Shown one piece after another: positions 2-7,398 of a stretch of 37,259 nucleotides of DNA (position 1 is its first letter; the number at the start of each line of letters is the position of its first letter). The position numbers and the translations under genes are program-made. The stretch is taken from the NCBI GenBank assembly GCA_003221195.1, contig QHQO01000156.1, positions 1 to 37,259 of the forward strand, given 5' to 3'. The notes beneath the pieces are model-generated. The model had not been told where the DNA came from. It saw only the letters and a list, made by a program, of their open reading frames with translations, and searched no databases. This DNA is from Verrucomicrobiota bacterium (GTDB lineage: Bacteria > Verrucomicrobiota > Verrucomicrobiia > Chthoniobacterales > UBA10450).

Positions 2-1972
2 GAGTGTGAGGTAAAGCACGGGCTGAGGCTGCACCTGGTTAATCTCTACAAAGACAATCTCGGCAACCCACATGTTCCGGACAAACTCAAGCGAAGAAGA
101 TGGAAGCAGGCGTCCGGTGTTAGCGTCCGTCCAGTCATTACGCCGCGTTGGTCCAAGTATGTGCTTACCGCTGTTTTGCTCCTTTCAGCTGTGGCTTTGA
201 CGATCAGCTTTTCAGTCTTTTACCGACGAGGCTCACCGGCGGTTGCCCGCTCCTCTTCGGGGAAAGTCGCCGACGGAGGACTTCCTATTCCGGAAAAAAG
301 CATCGCGGTGCTTCCGTTTGAAAGCCGGAGCGAAGATAAAGCCAACGCCTACTTTGCTGATGGTATTCAGGATGAAATTCTGACGCGCTTGTCCAAAATC
401 GCAGATCTAAAAGTAATCTCGCGCACATCGACGCAGCATTACAAAAGCGCGCCGGAAAATCTGCCCGAGATCGCCAGGCAACTTGGCGTCGCCCACGTCC
501 TGGAAGGCAGCGTGCAAAAGAGCGGCGAGGCCGTGCGCGTGAACGTGCAGCTTATCAAAGCAGTCAATGATTCCCATCTTTGGGCTGACACCTTTGATCG
601 CAAACTGACCGATATCTTTTCGGTCGAGAGTGAGGTAGCCAAAGCCATCGCCGACCAGTTGCGAGCGCACCTTACTGGCCAGGAAGAGCAAGTCATCGCC
701 GCGAAGCCGACGGACAATGTTGAAGCCTACGATGCCTATCTGCGCGGGCTGGCTTATACGCTGAAAACGGCCAACACACCCGCGAACGCCCTTGGCGCAC
801 AGAAATATCTCAGAGAAGCGGTGCGGTTGGACCCGAAGTTCGCCCTCGGTTGGGCGCTACTCTCATACGTGCAAGCACGCGGCTACATCACACTGACTCT
901 TCAACCAACAGTGGCTCTGCGTGAAGAGGCACGGCAGGCAGCCGAAACCGCAGTCACTCTTCAGCCTAACCTTGGCGAGGCCCTGATGGCGAAGGGCCAT
1001 TATCACTACGCCTGCCTGAAGGATTACGACACCGCGGTGCATTACTTTGAGCAAGCACGTCTGCTTCTGCCCAATAGCAGCCAGATTCCTGCCTCGCTGG
1101 CCTATGTCGCACGGAGGCGAGGCCAGTGGGACCGGAGCGAGAGTTACTTCAACGAAGCCGAGCGGCTCGACCCGCGCAACGTCAACCTACTCAGCCAGCA
1201 TGCGATTTCCTATATCTGTCTTCGGCGTTTCCCGGAAGCGTTGCGGAAGCTTGATCAGGTTCTCGATATCACACCGGACGACCTCGATACCCTCGTGTAC
1301 AAGGCCGCTATTTTACAAGCCGAGGGCGATCTGCCGCACGCTGCGGCGCTGCTCGCTCCGCTGCATCCGAACGCCGACGACACCCCCGCGTTGGAAACAC
1401 AGGTTTACCAGGCGATCCTGGAGCGACGCCCTGCACAAATCATTCCTCGGCTAAAGGAAATACTTGCCAAGCCTGATCCAGCGTTGGGTTATAACAATGG
1501 CGAACTGCGCTTTTGGTTAGGCTGGGCGCAAGAAGTCGCCGGTGATCACGCTGCCGCCCAGGAAAGCTGGCGGCAGGCGCGCAGCGAACTGGACCTTTTT
1601 CTCAAAGAACAGCCGGAAAATGATATCCTGATTGGCGATCTCGCGCTGACCAATATGGTTCTCGGTGACAAAGCCGCTGGGTTGGCTCTGTCAGAGCGGA
1701 ACATGGCCGCGAACCCGATCGAGAAAGACGCGGTGCTTGGTCCCGCTCCGATCGAGATCTTCGCCCGGGTTGCGGCGGGCATCGGGGAGCCCGACCGCGC
1801 CATCGCCGCTTTACAGAAATTACTCTCGACACCGTACAATAGCCCGCTGGCTGAAAACGTGCCGCTCACTCCCGCGCTGCTCCGGCTCGATCCCATGTTC
1901 GATCCGCTCCGGAACGATCCGCGCTTCCAAAAACTCGCCGCGTCGCCCGCGACCAACAATACAAAGCGGTAG
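2..1972 (+). CDS. TolB-like/TPR repeat protein (5' end outside window)
   Basis: The frame is open from the window edge, so the gene is taken as truncated on the left; a GTG at 161 is the first start codon in view, but 53 sense codons precede it. Counting from that GTG, a membrane segment lies at about residues 1-20 (it begins just upstream, at WSKYVLTAV). A TolB/FlgO-like domain follows at about 47-170, with the family hallmarks SIAVLPFESRS, YFADGIQDEILTRL and HVLEGSVQKSG. TPR-like helical repeats run from about 185 to 590. Such proteins are usually membrane-anchored, often with a signalling head (adenylate cyclase, kinase or winged helix) on the N-terminus. The head here is outside the window, and the visible upstream residues match no family I recognise. 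Two paralogues lie at 16499-18562 and 22250-25096. The stop codon lies inside the tRNA-Asn remnant of the convergent tRNA array. Confidence 0.85.
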   Translation, partial: ECEVKHGLRLHLVNLYKDNLGNPHVPDKLKRRRWKQASGVSVRPVITPRWSKYVLTAVLLLSAVALTISFSVFYRRGSPAVARSSSGKVADGGLPIPEKSIAVLPFESRSEDKANAYFADGIQDEILTRLSKIADLKVISRTSTQHYKSAPENLPEIARQLGVAHVLEGSVQKSGEAVRVNVQLIKAVNDSHLWADTFDRKLTDIFSVESEVAKAIADQLRAHLTGQEEQVIAAKPTDNVEAYDAYLRGLAYTLKTANTPANALGAQKYLREAVRLDPKFALGWALLSYVQARGYITLTLQPTVALREEARQAAETAVTLQPNLGEALMAKGHYHYACLKDYDTAVHYFEQARLLLPNSSQIPASLAYVARRRGQWDRSESYFNEAERLDPRNVNLLSQHAISYICLRRFPEALRKLDQVLDITPDDLDTLVYKAAILQAEGDLPHAAALLAPLHPNADDTPALETQVYQAILERRPAQIIPRLKEILAKPDPALGYNNGELRFWLGWAQEVAGDHAAAQESWRQARSELDLFLKEQPENDILIGDLALTNMVLGDKAAGLALSERNMAANPIEKDAVLGPAPIEIFARVAAGIGEPDRAIAALQKLLSTPYNSPLAENVPLTPALLRLDPMFDPLRNDPRFQKLAASPATNNTKR

Positions 1973-2039
1973 GATTCGAACCTACGACCAATCGGTTAAT
2001 CCCGACTGCGTCGGGACTCTACGACTGAGCTACGCCTTG
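1962..2039 (-). pseudogene. tRNA-Asn-like remnant with palindromic insert
   Basis: Positions 1965-1999 are identical to 2299-2333 of the intact tRNA-Asn, and 2017-2035 match 2344-2362 with one mismatch. Between them the 10 nt that form the 5' anticodon strand are replaced by TCCCGACTGCGTCGGGA (2000-2016, plus strand), a 7-bp inverted repeat with a 3-nt centre. The sequence can still fold as a cloverleaf-like RNA: a 7-bp acceptor (CAAGGCG with CGCTTTG, one G.U), a 4-bp D stem, a 6-bp hairpin in place of the anticodon arm, a 15-nt variable region and a 5-bp T arm. There is no anticodon loop and no encoded CCA, so it cannot work as a normal tRNA. It overlaps the last codons of the TPR gene on the opposite strand. 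Confidence 0.8.
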
Positions 2040-2285
2040 ACGCTTAGCAGATATTCTCGAATCAGACGGGCAGATTTCCAGTTCTTAATTTCGCGCTCGC
2101 GGCGCATGGCGCTTGCGCGATCGGGATGCTGTTCCGACCAGACTAAAGTCCAAGGCCCGTTTTTCCTTGTGAATTTTCCATTAATCTTGTCGGTTCGATT
2201 ATGACTGGTGACTCGGTTCCTGAGATTCTCGGTGTGGCCGACATAGAAGTGACCCTGCGGATTTTGGAGAATAAACCCAAAACAT
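2030..2285 (-). pseudogene. GIY-YIG nuclease, frameshifted (unit behind tRNA-Asn)
   Basis: The minus strand encodes a canonical small GIY-YIG domain. It starts MFWVY at 2285, then needs 2 nt restored near 2270 to continue as ILQNPQGHFYVGHTENLRNR, with the expected downstream EREIKNWK segment and a TAG stop at 2030-2032. Repaired, it would be exactly 85 residues, like the intact GIY-YIG protein at 2497-2754, though it belongs to a different subfamily (REREIKNWK type against LENRPKGQGRGKGF type). The ATG lies 6 nt after the CCA end of tRNA-Asn, and the GGAG of the tRNA acceptor end sits where a Shine-Dalgarno would be. The TAG stop is contributed by the tRNA remnant. The 2-nt lesion could be true decay or an assembly error. 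Confidence 0.8.
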
Positions 2286-2291
2286 TTGAAA

Positions 2292-2366
2292 TGGCTCCAG
2301 CGGTAGGATTCGAACCTACGACCAATCGGTTAACAGCCGACCGCTCTACCACTGAGCTACGCTGGA
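2292..2366 (-). tRNA. tRNA-Asn (GTT)
   Basis: On the minus strand this is a complete 75-nt cloverleaf including the encoded CCA (2292-2294). It has a 7-bp acceptor (TCCAGCG with CGCTGGA), a D arm GCTC/GAGC, an anticodon stem GTCGG/CCGAT enclosing CTGTTAA with anticodon GTT, and a T arm GTAGG/CCTAC around TTCGAAT. All stems pair. It probably shares a transcript with the upstream tRNA-fMet and GIY-YIG gene, since all lie on one strand within about 900 bp, but no separate promoter was identified. Confidence 0.97.
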
Positions 2367-2446
2367 TTACATTTTTGGCCGAACGGCGGGCATACAGTTT
2401 GCCAAGAGAATCACGGGCGGCAAGTCGTTTCCAAATCTGCAAAATT

Positions 2447-2504
2447 AATTTGGTTGCGGGGGCGGGATTTGAACCCGCGGTCCGGCAGCTGCCGGATTAT
2501 GAGC
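2447..2504 (-). pseudogene. tRNA-fMet 3' remnant with palindromic insert
   Basis: Positions 2447-2480 are identical to 2769-2802 (T arm, acceptor 3' strand, CCA and 4 nt beyond), and 2497-2504 equals the anticodon-loop segment 2811-2818. Between them the 8 nt of the 3' anticodon strand (CCTTCAGG on the plus strand) are replaced by the perfect 16-nt palindrome TCCGGCAGCTGCCGGA (2481-2496). The 5' half of the tRNA is absent. The anticodon-loop fragment supplies the TAA stop of the adjoining GIY-YIG gene. Confidence 0.85.
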
Positions 2505-2772
2505 TGTCTCGATGCAAACCAGTGATCGTAAAAAAACCTTTCCCTCGTCCTTGCCCTTTCGGCCGGTTCTCTAATTTCCTCGCATCAGTCAGCGACAACT
2601 CCTCACTTTGCCAAGCAATTGCCCATGGACCGCGTCCCTGTGTCCAACGTGATTGGCCGGTGTTATGTTGTTCGACTCTACGCGCTGCATCGTTGGATAA
2701 GCCGATGTAGAATTTTCCCTCGCGATTTTGGATAACGTAAACGCGATAACGCACCGCTGATTAGCAGAAATT
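2451..2772 (-). mobile_element. putative tRNA-fMet-associated GIY-YIG mini-element
   Basis: A 322-bp unit between the CCA end of intact tRNA-fMet and the CCA end of its truncated copy, containing only the intact GIY-YIG gene. The two tRNA 3' ends form a 34-nt perfect direct repeat, which resembles the att repeats left when an element integrates into a tRNA gene. The same order of parts recurs in the neighbouring tRNA-Asn unit with a different tRNA and nuclease subfamily. Mobility is inferred. Confidence 0.6.
2497..2754 (-). CDS. small GIY-YIG endonuclease
   Basis: An 85-residue, single-domain GIY-YIG nuclease. The paired motif is VYVIQNREGKFYIG (residues 5-18), followed by the conserved R and H/N region ARRVEQHN and the glutamate of DARKLENRPKGQGRGKGF, which supplies the metal-binding acid in this subfamily. 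The family cuts DNA and includes homing endonucleases, UvrC-like enzymes and the many free-standing UPF0213-like proteins. The start is GTG at 2754; an in-frame TAA just upstream excludes a longer protein, and no strong Shine-Dalgarno is visible. The stop codon comes from the tRNA-fMet remnant. The gene sits 18 nt after the CCA of tRNA-fMet, which points to co-transcription. A role in spreading the unit is inference. Confidence 0.88.
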   Translation of the reverse strand: MRYRVYVIQNREGKFYIGLSNDAARRVEQHNTGQSRWTQGRGPWAIAWQSEELSLTDARKLENRPKGQGRGKGFFTITGLHRDSS

Positions 2773-2849
2773 TGGTTGCGGGGGCGGGATTTGAACCCGC
2801 GGCCTTCAGGTTATGAGCCTGACGAGCTACCAGGCTGCTCCACCCCGCG
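2773..2849 (-). tRNA. initiator tRNA-fMet (CAT)
   Basis: A complete 77-nt minus-strand cloverleaf with encoded CCA (2773-2775). The acceptor reads CGCGGGG with CCCCGCA, leaving the C1-A72 mismatch that marks bacterial initiators. The D arm has the 9-nt loop AGCCTGGTA, the anticodon loop is CTCATAA and the T arm is GCGGG/CCCGC. The anticodon stem is TCAGG/CCTGA, so the usual three consecutive G-C pairs at 29-31/39-41 are reduced to two, with A29-U41 in place of G-C. It is the first gene of the minus-strand tRNA/GIY-YIG array. Confidence 0.97.
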
Positions 2850-2854
2850 CGCCT

Positions 2855-2882
2855 AAAATAGTTCGGGATCGCTCCTGTGCAA
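2855..2882 (-). promoter_or_regulatory. possible sigma70-type promoter for the tRNA array
   Basis: On the minus strand TTGCAC (2882-2877) is followed after 16 nt by TATTTT (2860-2855). tRNA-fMet begins 5 nt beyond, so a transcript would start at or just inside the tRNA, which is tighter than usual. Placement is by eye only. Confidence 0.35.
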
Positions 2883-3043
2883 ATCGAAAAACTAATTCTA
2901 CGAAACAGAAACGGCCGCTTTCGAGCCGCTCTACGAATGATCTCTATCCGCCTTAGGCTGGAGCGAGGAACCAAGAAAAACTTGCTTTGAACAAGACTCT
3001 GGGAACCGTTCCAGTCGAACGGCGGTCTTCGGTAGGGTATCAA

Positions 3044-4687
3044 ATGGTCATCCGGGCATTCTTTGAACGACTTTTCACCAGCGAGTTTGCCCGGCGCGCA
3101 TTGCTTGCATTTCTCGTCGTCGCGCTTTTCCTCGCCGGAGTTCAGCTACGCCGCTGGATTGGAGAAAGCACGAGGCACGTGCGTTATCAGCACGACATCG
3201 TCAACGCTTTTTACTGGGGCAGCGAAACCCTGAAAGAAGCGCGTCGCTTATCGCCTAACGAAAGTGCGGCTAATTCATTCACAGGATTCTGCCGCGGCTA
3301 CTTCGCACTTTATGATCGGGTCAAGGGTAAGGCCTATGAGAAGGATTACGGTCTCGACTATCCGCCTCTCCGACTTCTGGTCATGGCGATCTGGGCGAAG
3401 GAGGTGCGTAATCAATTTCCCGGAGTCGATGACGGGCATCCAAAGCTGGTCAACCCGTTATTGAAGATCAATCTGTTATGCGAACTGCTTTCCGCTGTGG
3501 CAATTTTTTTCCTGGTGCGTCTGTGCGTGCAGCGATGCTCACGAACAACGCGGCCATCCTTGCTTCCTGGTTTGCCGTTAAGAGATCGCGCTTCGATCTG
3601 CGGCCTCGCTGCGGCGAGCGTGGCATGGCTTGAACCCTCCATGATTCTTGACGCGCACGGCTGGCCGCAGTGGGATGTATGGATCCTGCCGTTTTATCTC
3701 TTCGCTGCGCTCGCAGCGCTCAAGAAACGCTGGTTCGTGTGCGGTTGTCTGTTGGCCGCAGGCGCAATGTTTAAGGGGCAACTGTTATTCGTGACGCCGT
3801 TCTTTATTCTTTGGCCATTATGGCAAAAAAGATGGAACTACGCGCTGTCTGTACTCACGGGATTCACGGCCACTGCGGCTGTAATCGCGTCACCATGGCT
3901 TCTACGCACGCCGGCGGCCTGGCTCGCACTTGCTGCTGTCACCGGTGCTAGCTGGTCATTCATTCTGCAACGCAAGTTGCCACATCAAATTGCCTGGATC
4001 AGCGGGATTACCGGATGCGCTGTGTTTGTGATTGGCGCCTTCGCTGGCGGAAGCTTCGCGTGGTTGCAAGTCGGTTTTCTGTACGGCAGCGAGCATTATC
4101 CCTACCTTGTCATCAGTTCGTGTTACAACCTTCCATCACTTCTCTCCCAGCTAGGCTGGTCATTGAAGGATCCATTCTGTTCGGTCCATTTTGGATCTCT
4201 GCATTTCCATCTCACACTGCAATGGACGTTGCGGCTGCTCTACCTTGCCGCACTCACGGTATGCGCGTACGGGGCTGCGCAGCAGGTTCGCGATCGCGAC
4301 CCTCGCGTGTTGATTGCGATCACCGCTCCGTGGCTGCTGATGTTTGCGCTGCTGGGACAGATGCATGAGCGCTACTTCGTCTGGGGTGCGGTAGTTAGTG
4401 CCGTCGCCTTGGGAGTCAGTTTCAGATTGAGCATCATTCATTTCATTATCTCCGCGGCGAGCACGGCAATGATTGTGCATGTGATGCTGATCGATAAGAA
4501 GCTCGAAGCAACGCTCTGGGCGATTGACCTGCTCAAGCACATCCGACCTTATGCGTCCGTTTTGGTTCTGGCCTGCGTGGCTGTTTACGTACGGAACACA
4601 TTACGGATGCCAGTCTTCGAACGTCGAGCACCTCGCCCAGCAGCGTCACCTTCGCTCTCGCTGGGACCGGAGCCCGAGGAAGCCTGA
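3044..4687 (+). CDS. GT-C-type membrane glycosyltransferase (GT87/DUF2029-like)
   Basis: A polytopic inner-membrane protein of 547 residues with about 10-12 hydrophobic segments. The first lumenal loop holds the DYPPL element (in GLDYPPLRLL) typical of mannosyltransferase-like GT-C enzymes. An HGWPQWD segment follows, then ALKKRWFVCGCLLAAGA with a K in MFKGQLLF, and late in the protein comes MHERYFVWG, the HERY motif shared by GT87/ALG-type transferases. Such enzymes take sugars from polyprenyl-phosphate donors to build glycans outside the membrane. The donor and acceptor cannot be told from sequence. The ATG at 3044 is preferred; a TTG at 2987 would add 19 polar residues without a clear ribosome site. 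It is convergent with the LptF/G gene. Confidence 0.75.
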   Translation: MVIRAFFERLFTSEFARRALLAFLVVALFLAGVQLRRWIGESTRHVRYQHDIVNAFYWGSETLKEARRLSPNESAANSFTGFCRGYFALYDRVKGKAYEKDYGLDYPPLRLLVMAIWAKEVRNQFPGVDDGHPKLVNPLLKINLLCELLSAVAIFFLVRLCVQRCSRTTRPSLLPGLPLRDRASICGLAAASVAWLEPSMILDAHGWPQWDVWILPFYLFAALAALKKRWFVCGCLLAAGAMFKGQLLFVTPFFILWPLWQKRWNYALSVLTGFTATAAVIASPWLLRTPAAWLALAAVTGASWSFILQRKLPHQIAWISGITGCAVFVIGAFAGGSFAWLQVGFLYGSEHYPYLVISSCYNLPSLLSQLGWSLKDPFCSVHFGSLHFHLTLQWTLRLLYLAALTVCAYGAAQQVRDRDPRVLIAITAPWLLMFALLGQMHERYFVWGAVVSAVALGVSFRLSIIHFIISAASTAMIVHVMLIDKKLEATLWAIDLLKHIRPYASVLVLACVAVYVRNTLRMPVFERRAPRPAASPSLSLGPEPEEA

Positions 4688-6946: not shown

Positions 6947-7398
6947 TCAGTCGCAGACGTAGCGTTCGTCGAAATCCACTCCGTGCTTGCGCAACAACTC
7001 ACAATATTCCTCTTCGAATGTACGCGTGCAATGGTGTTCTTGCTGCTTGTTTATGTATTCCAACACGGAGCTGAGCTGACTTGGCTCACCGGAAACGCGC
7101 CGTACCCGCGCTGCCAGAAAAAGCCGCGATACCGAAAATCAAGCGCTTTGATCCATTTTGACGACACTTTCTTTATCTGTTCGATGAATTGAGCTGGGAA
7201 AGTGTTCGTGGCAGCGTTGCCACAATGTGGACGTGATCTGCAACACCGCCGACGCGGACAAATTCGGCGCCGAGATCGCGGCAGATTGTCGCCAGATAAG
7301 CGTGCACGCGCGGCCGTACGTCTGAATCGAGCCAAGGCTCGCGATTTCTGGTGCTAAAGATGACGTGGAGAATGACTTTGCTTAACGACTGAGGGCAT
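6947..7398 (-). pseudogene. IS200-like/RAYT transposase, frameshifted
   Basis: Reading the minus strand across frames recovers a full-length Y1 transposase of about 150 residues. MPQSLSK starts at 7398 but an extra C breaks the frame at once. Then VILHVIFSTRNREPWL, the HUH motif DHVHIVATLPRTLSQ, FIEQIKKVSSKWIKAL, FFWQRGYGAFPVSQVS, and VLEYINKQQEHH, which carries the expected catalytic tyrosine, then a C-terminus ending DERYVCD. At least three single-nucleotide-type frameshifts (near 7393, 7190 and 7075) divide these pieces, so no functional protein is made. The family cuts single-stranded REP DNA and forms a 5'-phosphotyrosine link. Confidence 0.85.

What the first reader, a model, noticed from the sequence alone, without database searches (positions are those of the whole stretch)
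1962..2849. Twin tRNA/GIY-YIG mini-elements that appear to copy part of the tRNA they target
On the minus strand the order is intact tRNA, one 85-codon GIY-YIG nuclease gene, a partial second copy of the same tRNA, twice over: first with tRNA-fMet, then with tRNA-Asn. The tRNA repeats are 34 nt (2447-2480 = 2769-2802) and 35 nt (1965-1999 = 2299-2333) and are 322 and 334 bp apart. The two nucleases belong to different GIY-YIG subfamilies, so this is not a simple tandem duplication. A tRNA gene restored by an inserting element, with a 3' repeat at the far end, is known for integrase-borne islands; here the only protein is a tiny GIY-YIG nuclease. I infer a minimal tRNA-targeting homing-like element.
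Basis: partly seen in the sequence, partly recalled or inferred. Interest (0 to 1): 0.88.

Follow-up and report, generated by a model that had tools for sequence, protein, structure and literature searches.

The report
Tiny nuclease elements invading tRNA genes
A roughly 300-letter piece of DNA holding one small predicted DNA-cutting enzyme gene and a hairpin has inserted itself at tRNA genes in this bacterium and many relatives, leaving the tRNA gene whole by duplicating its second half, which looks like a very small kind of selfish mobile DNA that spares an essential gene.

Summary
The second nuclease frame is broken near its start. The anatomy recurs: fMet-type nucleases in public genomes have a tRNA upstream on the same strand in 42 of 49 loci; 64 of 78 loci at Met, Asn, Lys, Pro or Val tRNAs carry the 3' copy. 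Related species show occupied and empty alleles of one tRNA-Pro gene, with a clean insertion of about 307 bp, and nuclease-less derivatives. Nuclease subfamilies largely follow tRNA type on a tree (19 label changes against 35-44 in 300 shuffles) and look to be under purifying selection. Best reading: a minimal, tRNA-targeting, homing-like mobile element that duplicates the target's 3' part so the tRNA survives. Insertion is shown; cutting and copying are inferred. It resembles phage SegB and fungal mitochondrial mobile ORFs, but eight paper searches found no description of this kind.

The parts
2773..2849 (-). intact initiator tRNA-Met, target of element 1
   Evidence: ARAGORN, Rfam RF00005 65.1 bits; only full-length fMet match in the own genome, which is 86.8% complete
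2755..2772 (-). linker between tRNA-fMet and nuclease 1 (left end of element 1)
   Evidence: sequence
2497..2754 (-). nuclease 1, 85-codon single-domain GIY-YIG (UPF0213-like), fMet subfamily; its TAA stop lies in the tRNA-derived GCTCATAA segment
   Evidence: ORF, PF01541 E 4.5e-9, AF2 model mean pLDDT 81.4, best fold match UPF0213 1zg2 E 2.5e-4
2481..2496 (-). palindrome TCCGGCAGCTGCCGGA (right end of element 1)
   Evidence: sequence; hairpin kept in 34 distinct fMet-type right ends
2447..2480 (-). exact 34-nt copy of the tRNA-fMet 3' part plus 4 nt of flank
   Evidence: repeat; register -30 to +4
2292..2366 (-). intact tRNA-Asn(gtt), target of element 2
   Evidence: ARAGORN, Rfam 74.6 bits
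2030..2285 (-). nuclease 2, GIY-YIG, Asn subfamily, frame broken near the 5' end; TAG stop lies in the tRNA-derived GCGTAGCTCAG segment
   Evidence: frames, PF01541 E 3.1e-15, Asn clade
2000..2016 (-). palindrome TCCCGACGCAGTCGGGA (right end of element 2)
   Evidence: sequence; same stem with other loops in L011, L077, L169
1965..1999 (-). exact 35-nt copy of tRNA-Asn 3' part (starts in the anticodon)
   Evidence: repeat; register -42
1961..2039 (-). pseudo-tRNA formed by element 2's right end plus the copied 3' part, miscalled tRNA-Cys
   Evidence: (39.2 bits), fold

Best explanation
Each unit is a minimal mobile element of about 0.3 kb aimed at tRNA genes. It consists of a short left linker, one small GIY-YIG nuclease gene whose stop codon (here, and in the Pro and elongator-Met copies I read) lies in a tRNA-derived segment, and a palindrome at a fixed position within tRNA sequence; beyond the palindrome follows the displaced 3' part of the invaded tRNA. 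Shown by sequence comparison: it inserts cleanly into a tRNA gene, occupied and empty alleles coexist in related species, the tRNA 3' part (sometimes with downstream flank) is duplicated so that the tRNA stays complete, most nuclease subfamilies keep to one tRNA type, and the nuclease looks to be under purifying selection. Inferred: the nuclease nicks or cuts the uninvaded tRNA gene at or near the junction (variable loop/anticodon arm), and repair copies the element in from another copy; one broken end is joined to the palindrome end, the other carries a copied tRNA 3' part, which restores the tRNA. Nuclease-less units with a matching palindrome are probably moved in trans.
For: Empty/filled pair L096/L106: insert of about 307 bp between GACCAGG and AGGCCGTGGG with a 31-nt repeat, flanks alignable on both sides; nuclease-less insert L099 against empty L097. 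Occupancy in the genus, sorted by me from the printed sequence: tRNA-Pro(cgg), of 22 readable of 23 loci 8 with nuclease, 2 nuclease-less only, 1 decayed, 11 empty; tRNA-fMet, of 28 loci 11 occupied (one is the window itself), 2 decayed, 13 empty, 2 at contig ends. In the own and 18 same-genus genomes 32 of 86 non-uvrC GIY-YIG hits lie <=60 nt and 43 of 86 <=300 nt downstream of a tRNA/tmRNA on the same strand; one tRNA lies within 300 nt on the opposite strand; 0 of 12 uvrC loci (half of the 24) have a tRNA within 1.5 kb. Outside the genus: 24 of the 29 best loci. fMet subfamily in public genomes: 42 of 49. Repeat: 64 of 78 at Met/Asn/Lys/Pro/Val tRNAs, start fixed at the palindrome (-30 in 32 fMet rows, -42 in 4 of 5 Asn rows and -39 in L011, -30/-31 in 9 Pro rows), end -28 to +90 from the tRNA 3' end. 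Hairpin: 98.0% of cells paired (shuffled 91.8), covariation score 0.145 against 0.038, 0 of 500. Tree against target: 19 changes against 35-44. dN/dS 0.05-0.27 in the 30 of 40 pairs that gave a value.
Against: No cleavage or mobility was observed. The intact tRNA in an occupied allele should still be a target; no immunity mechanism is evident. In L053 and L240 the copy next to the tRNA is more diverged than the distal copy, the opposite of what repeated insertion into the intact tRNA predicts. Two of the five measures in the covariation count did not exceed shuffles (pairs with double changes 50/500; further pair types 450/500). At Ala, Gly, Leu and tmRNA 11 of 12 loci have no 3' copy, and at the other tRNAs 14 of 78 have none. 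Pro targets occur in three places of the tree and Val in two. Half of the genus hits (43 of 86) are not near a tRNA. Five further occupied/empty comparisons aligned poorly outside the tRNA. Spread to a new tRNA type needs fresh duplication of that tRNA's 3' part, which plain homing does not give.
Confidence: 0.7

Rival explanations
1. A hairpin-specific HUH (Y1/RAYT) transposase in trans moves these palindrome-ended units, as with REP/REPIN sequences, and the GIY-YIG gene is a passenger.
For: Y1_Tnp is found in 33 of 35 genus genomes; REP-like palindromes lie behind several of the tRNA-Pro genes (by eye) and the Pro-type palindrome also occurs alone in the own genome (L158, L160).
Against: The palindrome differs by nuclease subfamily and goes with that subfamily across tRNAs and taxa, except that the two units at tRNA-Val in L003 carry the Pro-type palindrome; nucleases look to be under purifying selection; target follows the nuclease tree better than shuffles. 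Two genus genomes give no Y1_Tnp match (G002, G005); G005 carries a nuclease with 3' copy at fMet (L079), though that genome is 68% complete.
Confidence: 0.12
2. Target-primed reverse transcription by a reverse transcriptase in trans, with the GIY-YIG nuclease nicking the tRNA gene (Penelope-like anatomy): fixed 3' end, long variable target-site duplication.
For: The repeat starts at a fixed point and ends variably, up to +48 and once +90; the element's own end is the palindrome.
Against: RVT_1 is found in only 8 of 35 genus genomes, many incomplete; Pro-family nuclease-less units seem to keep both ends rather than being 5'-truncated (by eye).
Confidence: 0.07
3. A tyrosine or serine integrase acting in trans integrates a circle whose att site is the tRNA 3' part (Campbell integration); the GIY-YIG gene is cargo.
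For: An intact tRNA followed by a 3' repeat at the far end is the classic outcome for integrase islands (recalled).
Against: No integrase fits in the 322- or 334-bp units; a subfamily-specific palindrome and nuclease are present instead. Repeat ends vary between loci. Integrases elsewhere in these genomes were not searched.
Confidence: 0.08
4. Not mobile now: a domesticated, co-transcribed tRNA-nuclease-pseudo-tRNA unit with a regulatory or tRNA-cutting role.
For: Same-strand arrangement, often 7-37 nt behind the tRNA; purifying selection; the hairpin-bearing ends fold as RNA (z -2.8 and -4.3).
Against: Patchy occupancy among related species, decayed and nuclease-less copies, tandem arrays, and a frame-broken nuclease in the window itself. 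Expression could not be tested.
Confidence: 0.08

Closest known systems
SegB of T-even phages (free-standing GIY-YIG homing endonuclease; PMC13096335, passages seen)
   Same: GIY-YIG, free-standing, tied to tRNA genes; the paper maps SegB breaks within tRNA genes and reports that it drives recombination-based amplification of a tRNA-segB segment.
   Different: Phage-borne; the passages I saw mention no subfamily palindrome and no duplicated tRNA 3' part. Ours are chromosomal, about 85 aa, one tRNA each.
Fungal mitochondrial mobile ORFs that duplicate a gene's end (atp6 of Allomyces and others; PMC3630166, passages seen)
   Same: Endonuclease ORF (LAGLIDADG, or GIY-YIG in atp9) inserted in an essential gene together with a duplicated 3' end, so the gene stays functional; the native end is left downstream.
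   Different: Targets are protein genes in mitochondria and the inserted end is foreign and diverged; here the targets are bacterial tRNA genes, both copies are often identical, and a palindrome marks the junction.
Integrase-borne islands at tRNA 3' ends (recalled)
   Same: tRNA restored, 3' repeat at the far end.
   Different: No integrase; unit far smaller; palindrome present.
rtT repeats behind E. coli tyrT (recalled; one search did not find a paper on them)
   Same: Repeated units holding a tRNA 3' end behind a tRNA gene.
   Different: No nuclease that I know of.
REP/REPIN with RAYT transposase (PMC3733652 seen as search listing only; otherwise recalled)
   Same: Small palindromic units, non-coding derivatives.
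   Different: No Y1 transposase in the unit; tRNA-specific site.

Membership tests
GIY-YIG nuclease (PF01541), UPF0213-like | Profile match and conserved Tyr, Arg, His, Glu positions (their catalytic role is recalled) | tested here: met
   PF01541 E 4.5e-9 and 3.1e-15; R26, E62 invariant, Y6, Y16, H30 nearly invariant in A4; closest solved relative UPF0213 1zg2
GIY-YIG nuclease (PF01541), UPF0213-like | DNA cleavage activity | not testable with these tools
   needs purified protein
Free-standing homing endonuclease gene | Occupied and empty alleles at the same site | tested here: met
   L106/L096, L099/L097; occupancy counts
Free-standing homing endonuclease gene | Nuclease cuts the empty allele | not testable with these tools
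   no assay
Free-standing homing endonuclease gene | Insertion destroys or masks the cleavage site | tested here: inconclusive
   an intact tRNA remains in the occupied allele; the outer copy has the palindrome instead
Integrase-borne tRNA island | Encodes an integrase | tested here: not met
   322- and 334-bp units; the only gene recognised in them is the GIY-YIG one
Group I intron with GIY-YIG | Group I ribozyme sequence | tested here: not met
   Rfam scan of window 1500-3400 shows three tRNA matches and two hits far below their gathering scores
Penelope-like/retroelement | Reverse transcriptase | tested here: not met
   no room for one in the unit; RVT_1 in 8 of 35 genus genomes
REP/RAYT | Y1 transposase linked to the palindrome | tested here: not met

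The most novel reading that the evidence does not exclude
A separate class of DNA mobile element in which a single-domain, possibly structure-selective GIY-YIG nuclease (after UPF0213 proteins the next fold matches are Slx1 chains, E 0.02-0.06) works with its own subfamily-specific palindrome as a complete mobility system. It enters tRNA genes, re-creates the tRNA by duplicating its 3' part, mobilises nuclease-less hairpin units in trans, and occurs in Verrucomicrobiota and, judging by a 1.1-Mb genome titled Ca. Abawacabacteria with fMet and Pro elements, beyond that phylum.
Probability: 0.4. Interest if true: 0.9.

Novelty: new variant of a known kind. Interest (0 to 1): 0.78.

Why it matters
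If right, an 85-residue protein and a hairpin suffice for a mobile element that invades essential tRNA genes without killing them. That would give a function to small GIY-YIG genes beside tRNAs, explain some false tRNA calls (tRNA-Cys here), and offer a very small site-specific insertion system aimed at well conserved sites. It poses a testable question: how does the element avoid re-cutting the tRNA that it restores?

Tried and rejected
Chance or assembly artefact: rejected, since the same anatomy recurs in many separately assembled genomes, one of them a record titled as a chromosome (L199). Simple tandem duplication of one unit: rejected, the two nucleases belong to different clades. Group I intron: no Rfam match in window 1500-3400. 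Phage-borne origin: one exact scan of viral contigs for the commonest fMet right end found nothing; other subfamilies and variants were not scanned. Integrase between a solo 5' tRNA-Pro half and the intact tRNA in G008: no ORF there looked like one by eye (not run against Pfam). Target-primed reverse transcription was attractive because of the variable repeat ends but is disfavoured by the rarity of reverse transcriptase. Paper searches listed no paper that describes GIY-YIG/tRNA 3'-copy elements in bacteria, judged by titles and abstracts; two papers were opened for passages. The library lacks most subscription journals and preprints.

Rows dropped before counts: the nuclease tree (34 genus and 24 phylum rows) left out L077, genus frames without a tRNA within 300 nt, under 62 residues or with internal stops, and of the 29 phylum loci the 5 without a tRNA call. 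For the hairpin count, 47 of the 49 loci were tried (L237 and L239 left out), the right-end pattern fitted 37 of these, and 35 were aligned (L194 and L201 left out), 34 of them distinct. One search took all 86 genus hits, 36 of the 49 loci and 12 of the 29 phylum loci; 90 had an upstream tRNA. Some places seem to occur twice there under different handles (L168 and L210, L173 and L203, L182 and L207, judged by equal sequence). The tRNA-Pro occupancy count leaves out L117 (not readable by my script) and a second full match in G015 without a locus (later L240).
Full report
What is in the window. On the minus strand, tRNA-fMet (2849-2773) is followed after 18 nt by an 85-codon GIY-YIG ORF (2754-2497), a perfect palindrome (2496-2481) and an exact 34-nt copy of the tRNA's 3' part (2480-2447). 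Then tRNA-Asn (2366-2292) is followed by a second GIY-YIG frame (broken near its start), a second palindrome (2016-2000) and an exact 35-nt copy of the tRNA-Asn 3' part (1999-1965). In both units the nuclease's stop codon lies in tRNA-like sequence (GCTCATAA; GCGTAGCTCAG) shortly before the palindrome. ARAGORN calls the second remnant tRNA-Cys. Nuclease 1 is open but has Pro at a position (65) that is Leu in at least 90% of its relatives, so it too may be decaying.

The same thing elsewhere in the genome. The own genome gives 10 GIY-YIG hits, one of them uvrC-like by length. Besides the two in the window, one follows tRNA-Pro with a 30-nt 3' copy behind a GGTCGCCGCGGCGAC palindrome, one follows tRNA-Val after two 93-nt nuclease-less units that carry the same palindrome, and one follows tmRNA without a copy; the other five (uvrC included) have no tRNA in their 3-kb loci.

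The genus. In the own and 18 same-genus genomes I examined 86 non-uvrC hits (101 hits less 15 with frames over 500 aa): 32 lie within 60 nt and 43 within 300 nt downstream of a tRNA or tmRNA on the same strand; one tRNA lies within 300 nt on the opposite strand; none of 12 uvrC loci (of 24 uvrC-like hits) has a tRNA within 1.5 kb. The other 43 hits belong mostly to other subfamilies. Targets are Asn, Pro (three anticodons), initiator and elongator Met, Lys, Val, and at greater distance Ala, Gly and tmRNA. In eMet, Lys, Asn and Pro(ggg) loci (L011, L055, L069, L071, L072, L074) the form is a sandwich: 5' tRNA half plus palindrome, then an intact tRNA, the nuclease, and a like palindrome plus the 3' half. 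Read together, the outer halves are a tRNA whose anticodon arm is replaced by a hairpin.

Empty sites. tRNA-Pro(cgg) was sought in 35 genus genomes; of 23 loci printed, 22 could be read: 8 have a nuclease, 2 a nuclease-less unit only, 1 is decayed and 11 are empty. For tRNA-fMet, of 28 loci 11 are occupied (one is the window), 2 decayed, 13 empty and 2 at contig ends. These sortings were made by reading the output. The alignment of L106 (occupied) with L096 (empty) shows an insert of about 307 bp between the anticodon arm and the variable loop, a 31-nt repeat, and alignable flanks on both sides; L099 against L097 shows a nuclease-less insert at the same site. Five other pairs (L143/L141, L136/L135, L127/L125, L115/L097, L100/L097) agree upstream and in the tRNA but gave no clean alignment downstream.

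Beyond the genus. A profile search found matches in 169 of 387 phylum genomes at E <= 1e-10. Of the 29 best loci outside the genus, 24 have a tRNA or tmRNA upstream on the same strand, within 390 nt; four of the five others have under 340 nt of upstream sequence, and the fifth (L162) shows a 30-nt Pro-type repeat without a tRNA call. A scan of one genome each for 84,980 species with the fMet subfamily returned 49 loci, mostly Verrucomicrobiota by record title (including Opitutia, Limisphaerales, Lentisphaerae and Victivallales), one Ca. Abawacabacteria and one Ca. Zipacnadia record. 42 of 49 have a tRNA upstream on the same strand within 700 nt, 41 called Met and one Ile(aat). Of the seven misses, L205, L212 and L223 show tRNA 3' sequence upstream without a full call, L217 has the reverse order (hairpin pseudo-tRNA first, intact tRNA behind the nuclease), L225 has 216 nt upstream and a right end, and L237 and L239 begin at the edge. 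In the 1.1-Mb genome of the Abawacabacteria record, one of five nuclease hits lies behind tRNA-Pro(ggg) with the palindrome GGTCGCC-TGA-GGCGACC, close to the Pro-type palindrome of the window's genus, but without an intact 3' copy; another is the fMet element. Wrong binning was not tested.

The junction. Among 90 loci with an upstream tRNA, 65 show the downstream copy; at Met, Asn, Lys, Pro and Val tRNAs 64 of 78, at Ala, Gly, Leu and tmRNA 1 of 12. The copy starts at the palindrome in a register set by the tRNA family (-30 in 32 fMet rows, -42 in 4 of the 5 Asn rows and -39 in L011, -30 or -31 in 9 Pro rows) and ends from -28 to +90 relative to the tRNA 3' end, so downstream flank is sometimes duplicated too. 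In the fMet family the right end reads GGCTCATAAT-CCCGC-(loop)-GCGGG-A, or CCGGC/GCCGG in the stem, before the T-arm. In 34 distinct right ends 98.0% of cells pair (91.8% in shuffles), 9 cells show changes on both sides (1.7 in shuffles) and the covariation score is 0.145 (0.038; 0 of 500 shuffles); the number of pairs with double changes (2; 50 of 500) and of further pair types (2; 450 of 500) does not stand out.

The nuclease. dN/dS (NG86) is 0.064-0.251 in 22 of 28 Pro pairs, 0.053-0.103 in 3 of 3 eMet pairs, 0.072-0.274 in 5 of 6 fMet pairs and without a value in 3 of 3 tmRNA/Ala pairs; missing values and several dS above 1 point to saturation, so these ratios are rough. A tree of 58 nucleases needs 19 changes of target label against 35-44 in 300 label shuffles; with 80 columns 27 of 55 inner branches are open. 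Asn, fMet, eMet plus Lys, genus Pro and genus Val form groups; Pro also occurs outside its genus group (L175, L189, L183), Val once (L187). One large group (Ala, Gly, Leu, Phe, Tyr, tmRNA and others) is loose in target. An AlphaFold2 model (mean pLDDT 81.4) matches UPF0213 proteins (1zg2, 1ywl) and then Slx1, titled a branched-DNA nuclease, with only 1zg2 under E 0.001.

Mechanism. Shown: clean insertion, tRNA preserved by duplication, subfamily palindromes, target preference, signs of selection on the nuclease, derivatives without nuclease. Inferred: cutting at the tRNA junction and copying-in by repair. A long, variable repeat that starts at a fixed point suggests that one joint is set by the cut and the other by how far repair or a second cut reaches. 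A reverse transcriptase is unlikely (8 of 35 genomes); a Y1 transposase in trans cannot be excluded (33 of 35). Unsolved: how the occupied allele escapes re-cutting, and why the copy next to the tRNA is the more diverged one in L053 and L240.

Known relatives. SegB (PMC13096335, passages) is a GIY-YIG free-standing homing endonuclease that cuts in tRNA genes; its motif RAWTSGAAC reads, on the other strand, like a tRNA T-loop (my reading). Fungal mitochondrial mobile ORFs (PMC3630166, passages) insert with a duplicated gene end so that the gene survives. This finding combines both ideas in bacterial chromosomes with a palindrome at the junction. I call it a new variant of a known kind; the bolder reading, a separate class of hairpin-ended nuclease element, is not excluded.

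Noticed in passing
L001, L005 (own genome), L020, L092: Another small GIY-YIG subfamily, not at tRNAs, is flanked by REP-like repeats (GTCATCCCGAGCGAAGCGAGGGACC type, inverted on the two sides in L005): again a small nuclease paired with palindromes.
   Followed up: partly
L008 (G000:C19:1519-1698): A GIY-YIG gene sits inside a tyrosine-recombinase-like (integron-integrase-like, by eye) gene, splitting it near an LLGH motif; similar nucleases occur in other genus genomes.
   Followed up: no
L240, L241, L244-L248: Solo 5' halves of tRNA-Pro ending at or near GGGAC, in several genomes followed by a partly conserved non-tRNA sequence: possibly another element type or an integrase attachment remnant.
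   Followed up: partly
window 1961-2039 (-): The pseudo-tRNA folds as a complete tRNA-like shape with acceptor pairs not derived from tRNA-Asn (CAAGG/CTTTG); ARAGORN calls it tRNA-Cys, a possible annotation error in public records.
   Followed up: partly
window 7197-7382 (-): Y1_Tnp (HUH/RAYT-type transposase) match to part of the profile in the window (E 7.9e-10).
   Followed up: no
L007, L054, L068, L166, L170, L171: A loose-target GIY-YIG group lies about 128-185 nt behind tmRNA genes (others behind Ala, Gly, Leu, Tyr, Phe tRNAs); no copied 3' end was found in L007, L054 and L068.
   Followed up: partly
window 161-1972 (+): The convergent TPR-like ORF ends inside the duplicated tRNA sequence, taking its stop codon from it.
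   Followed up: no
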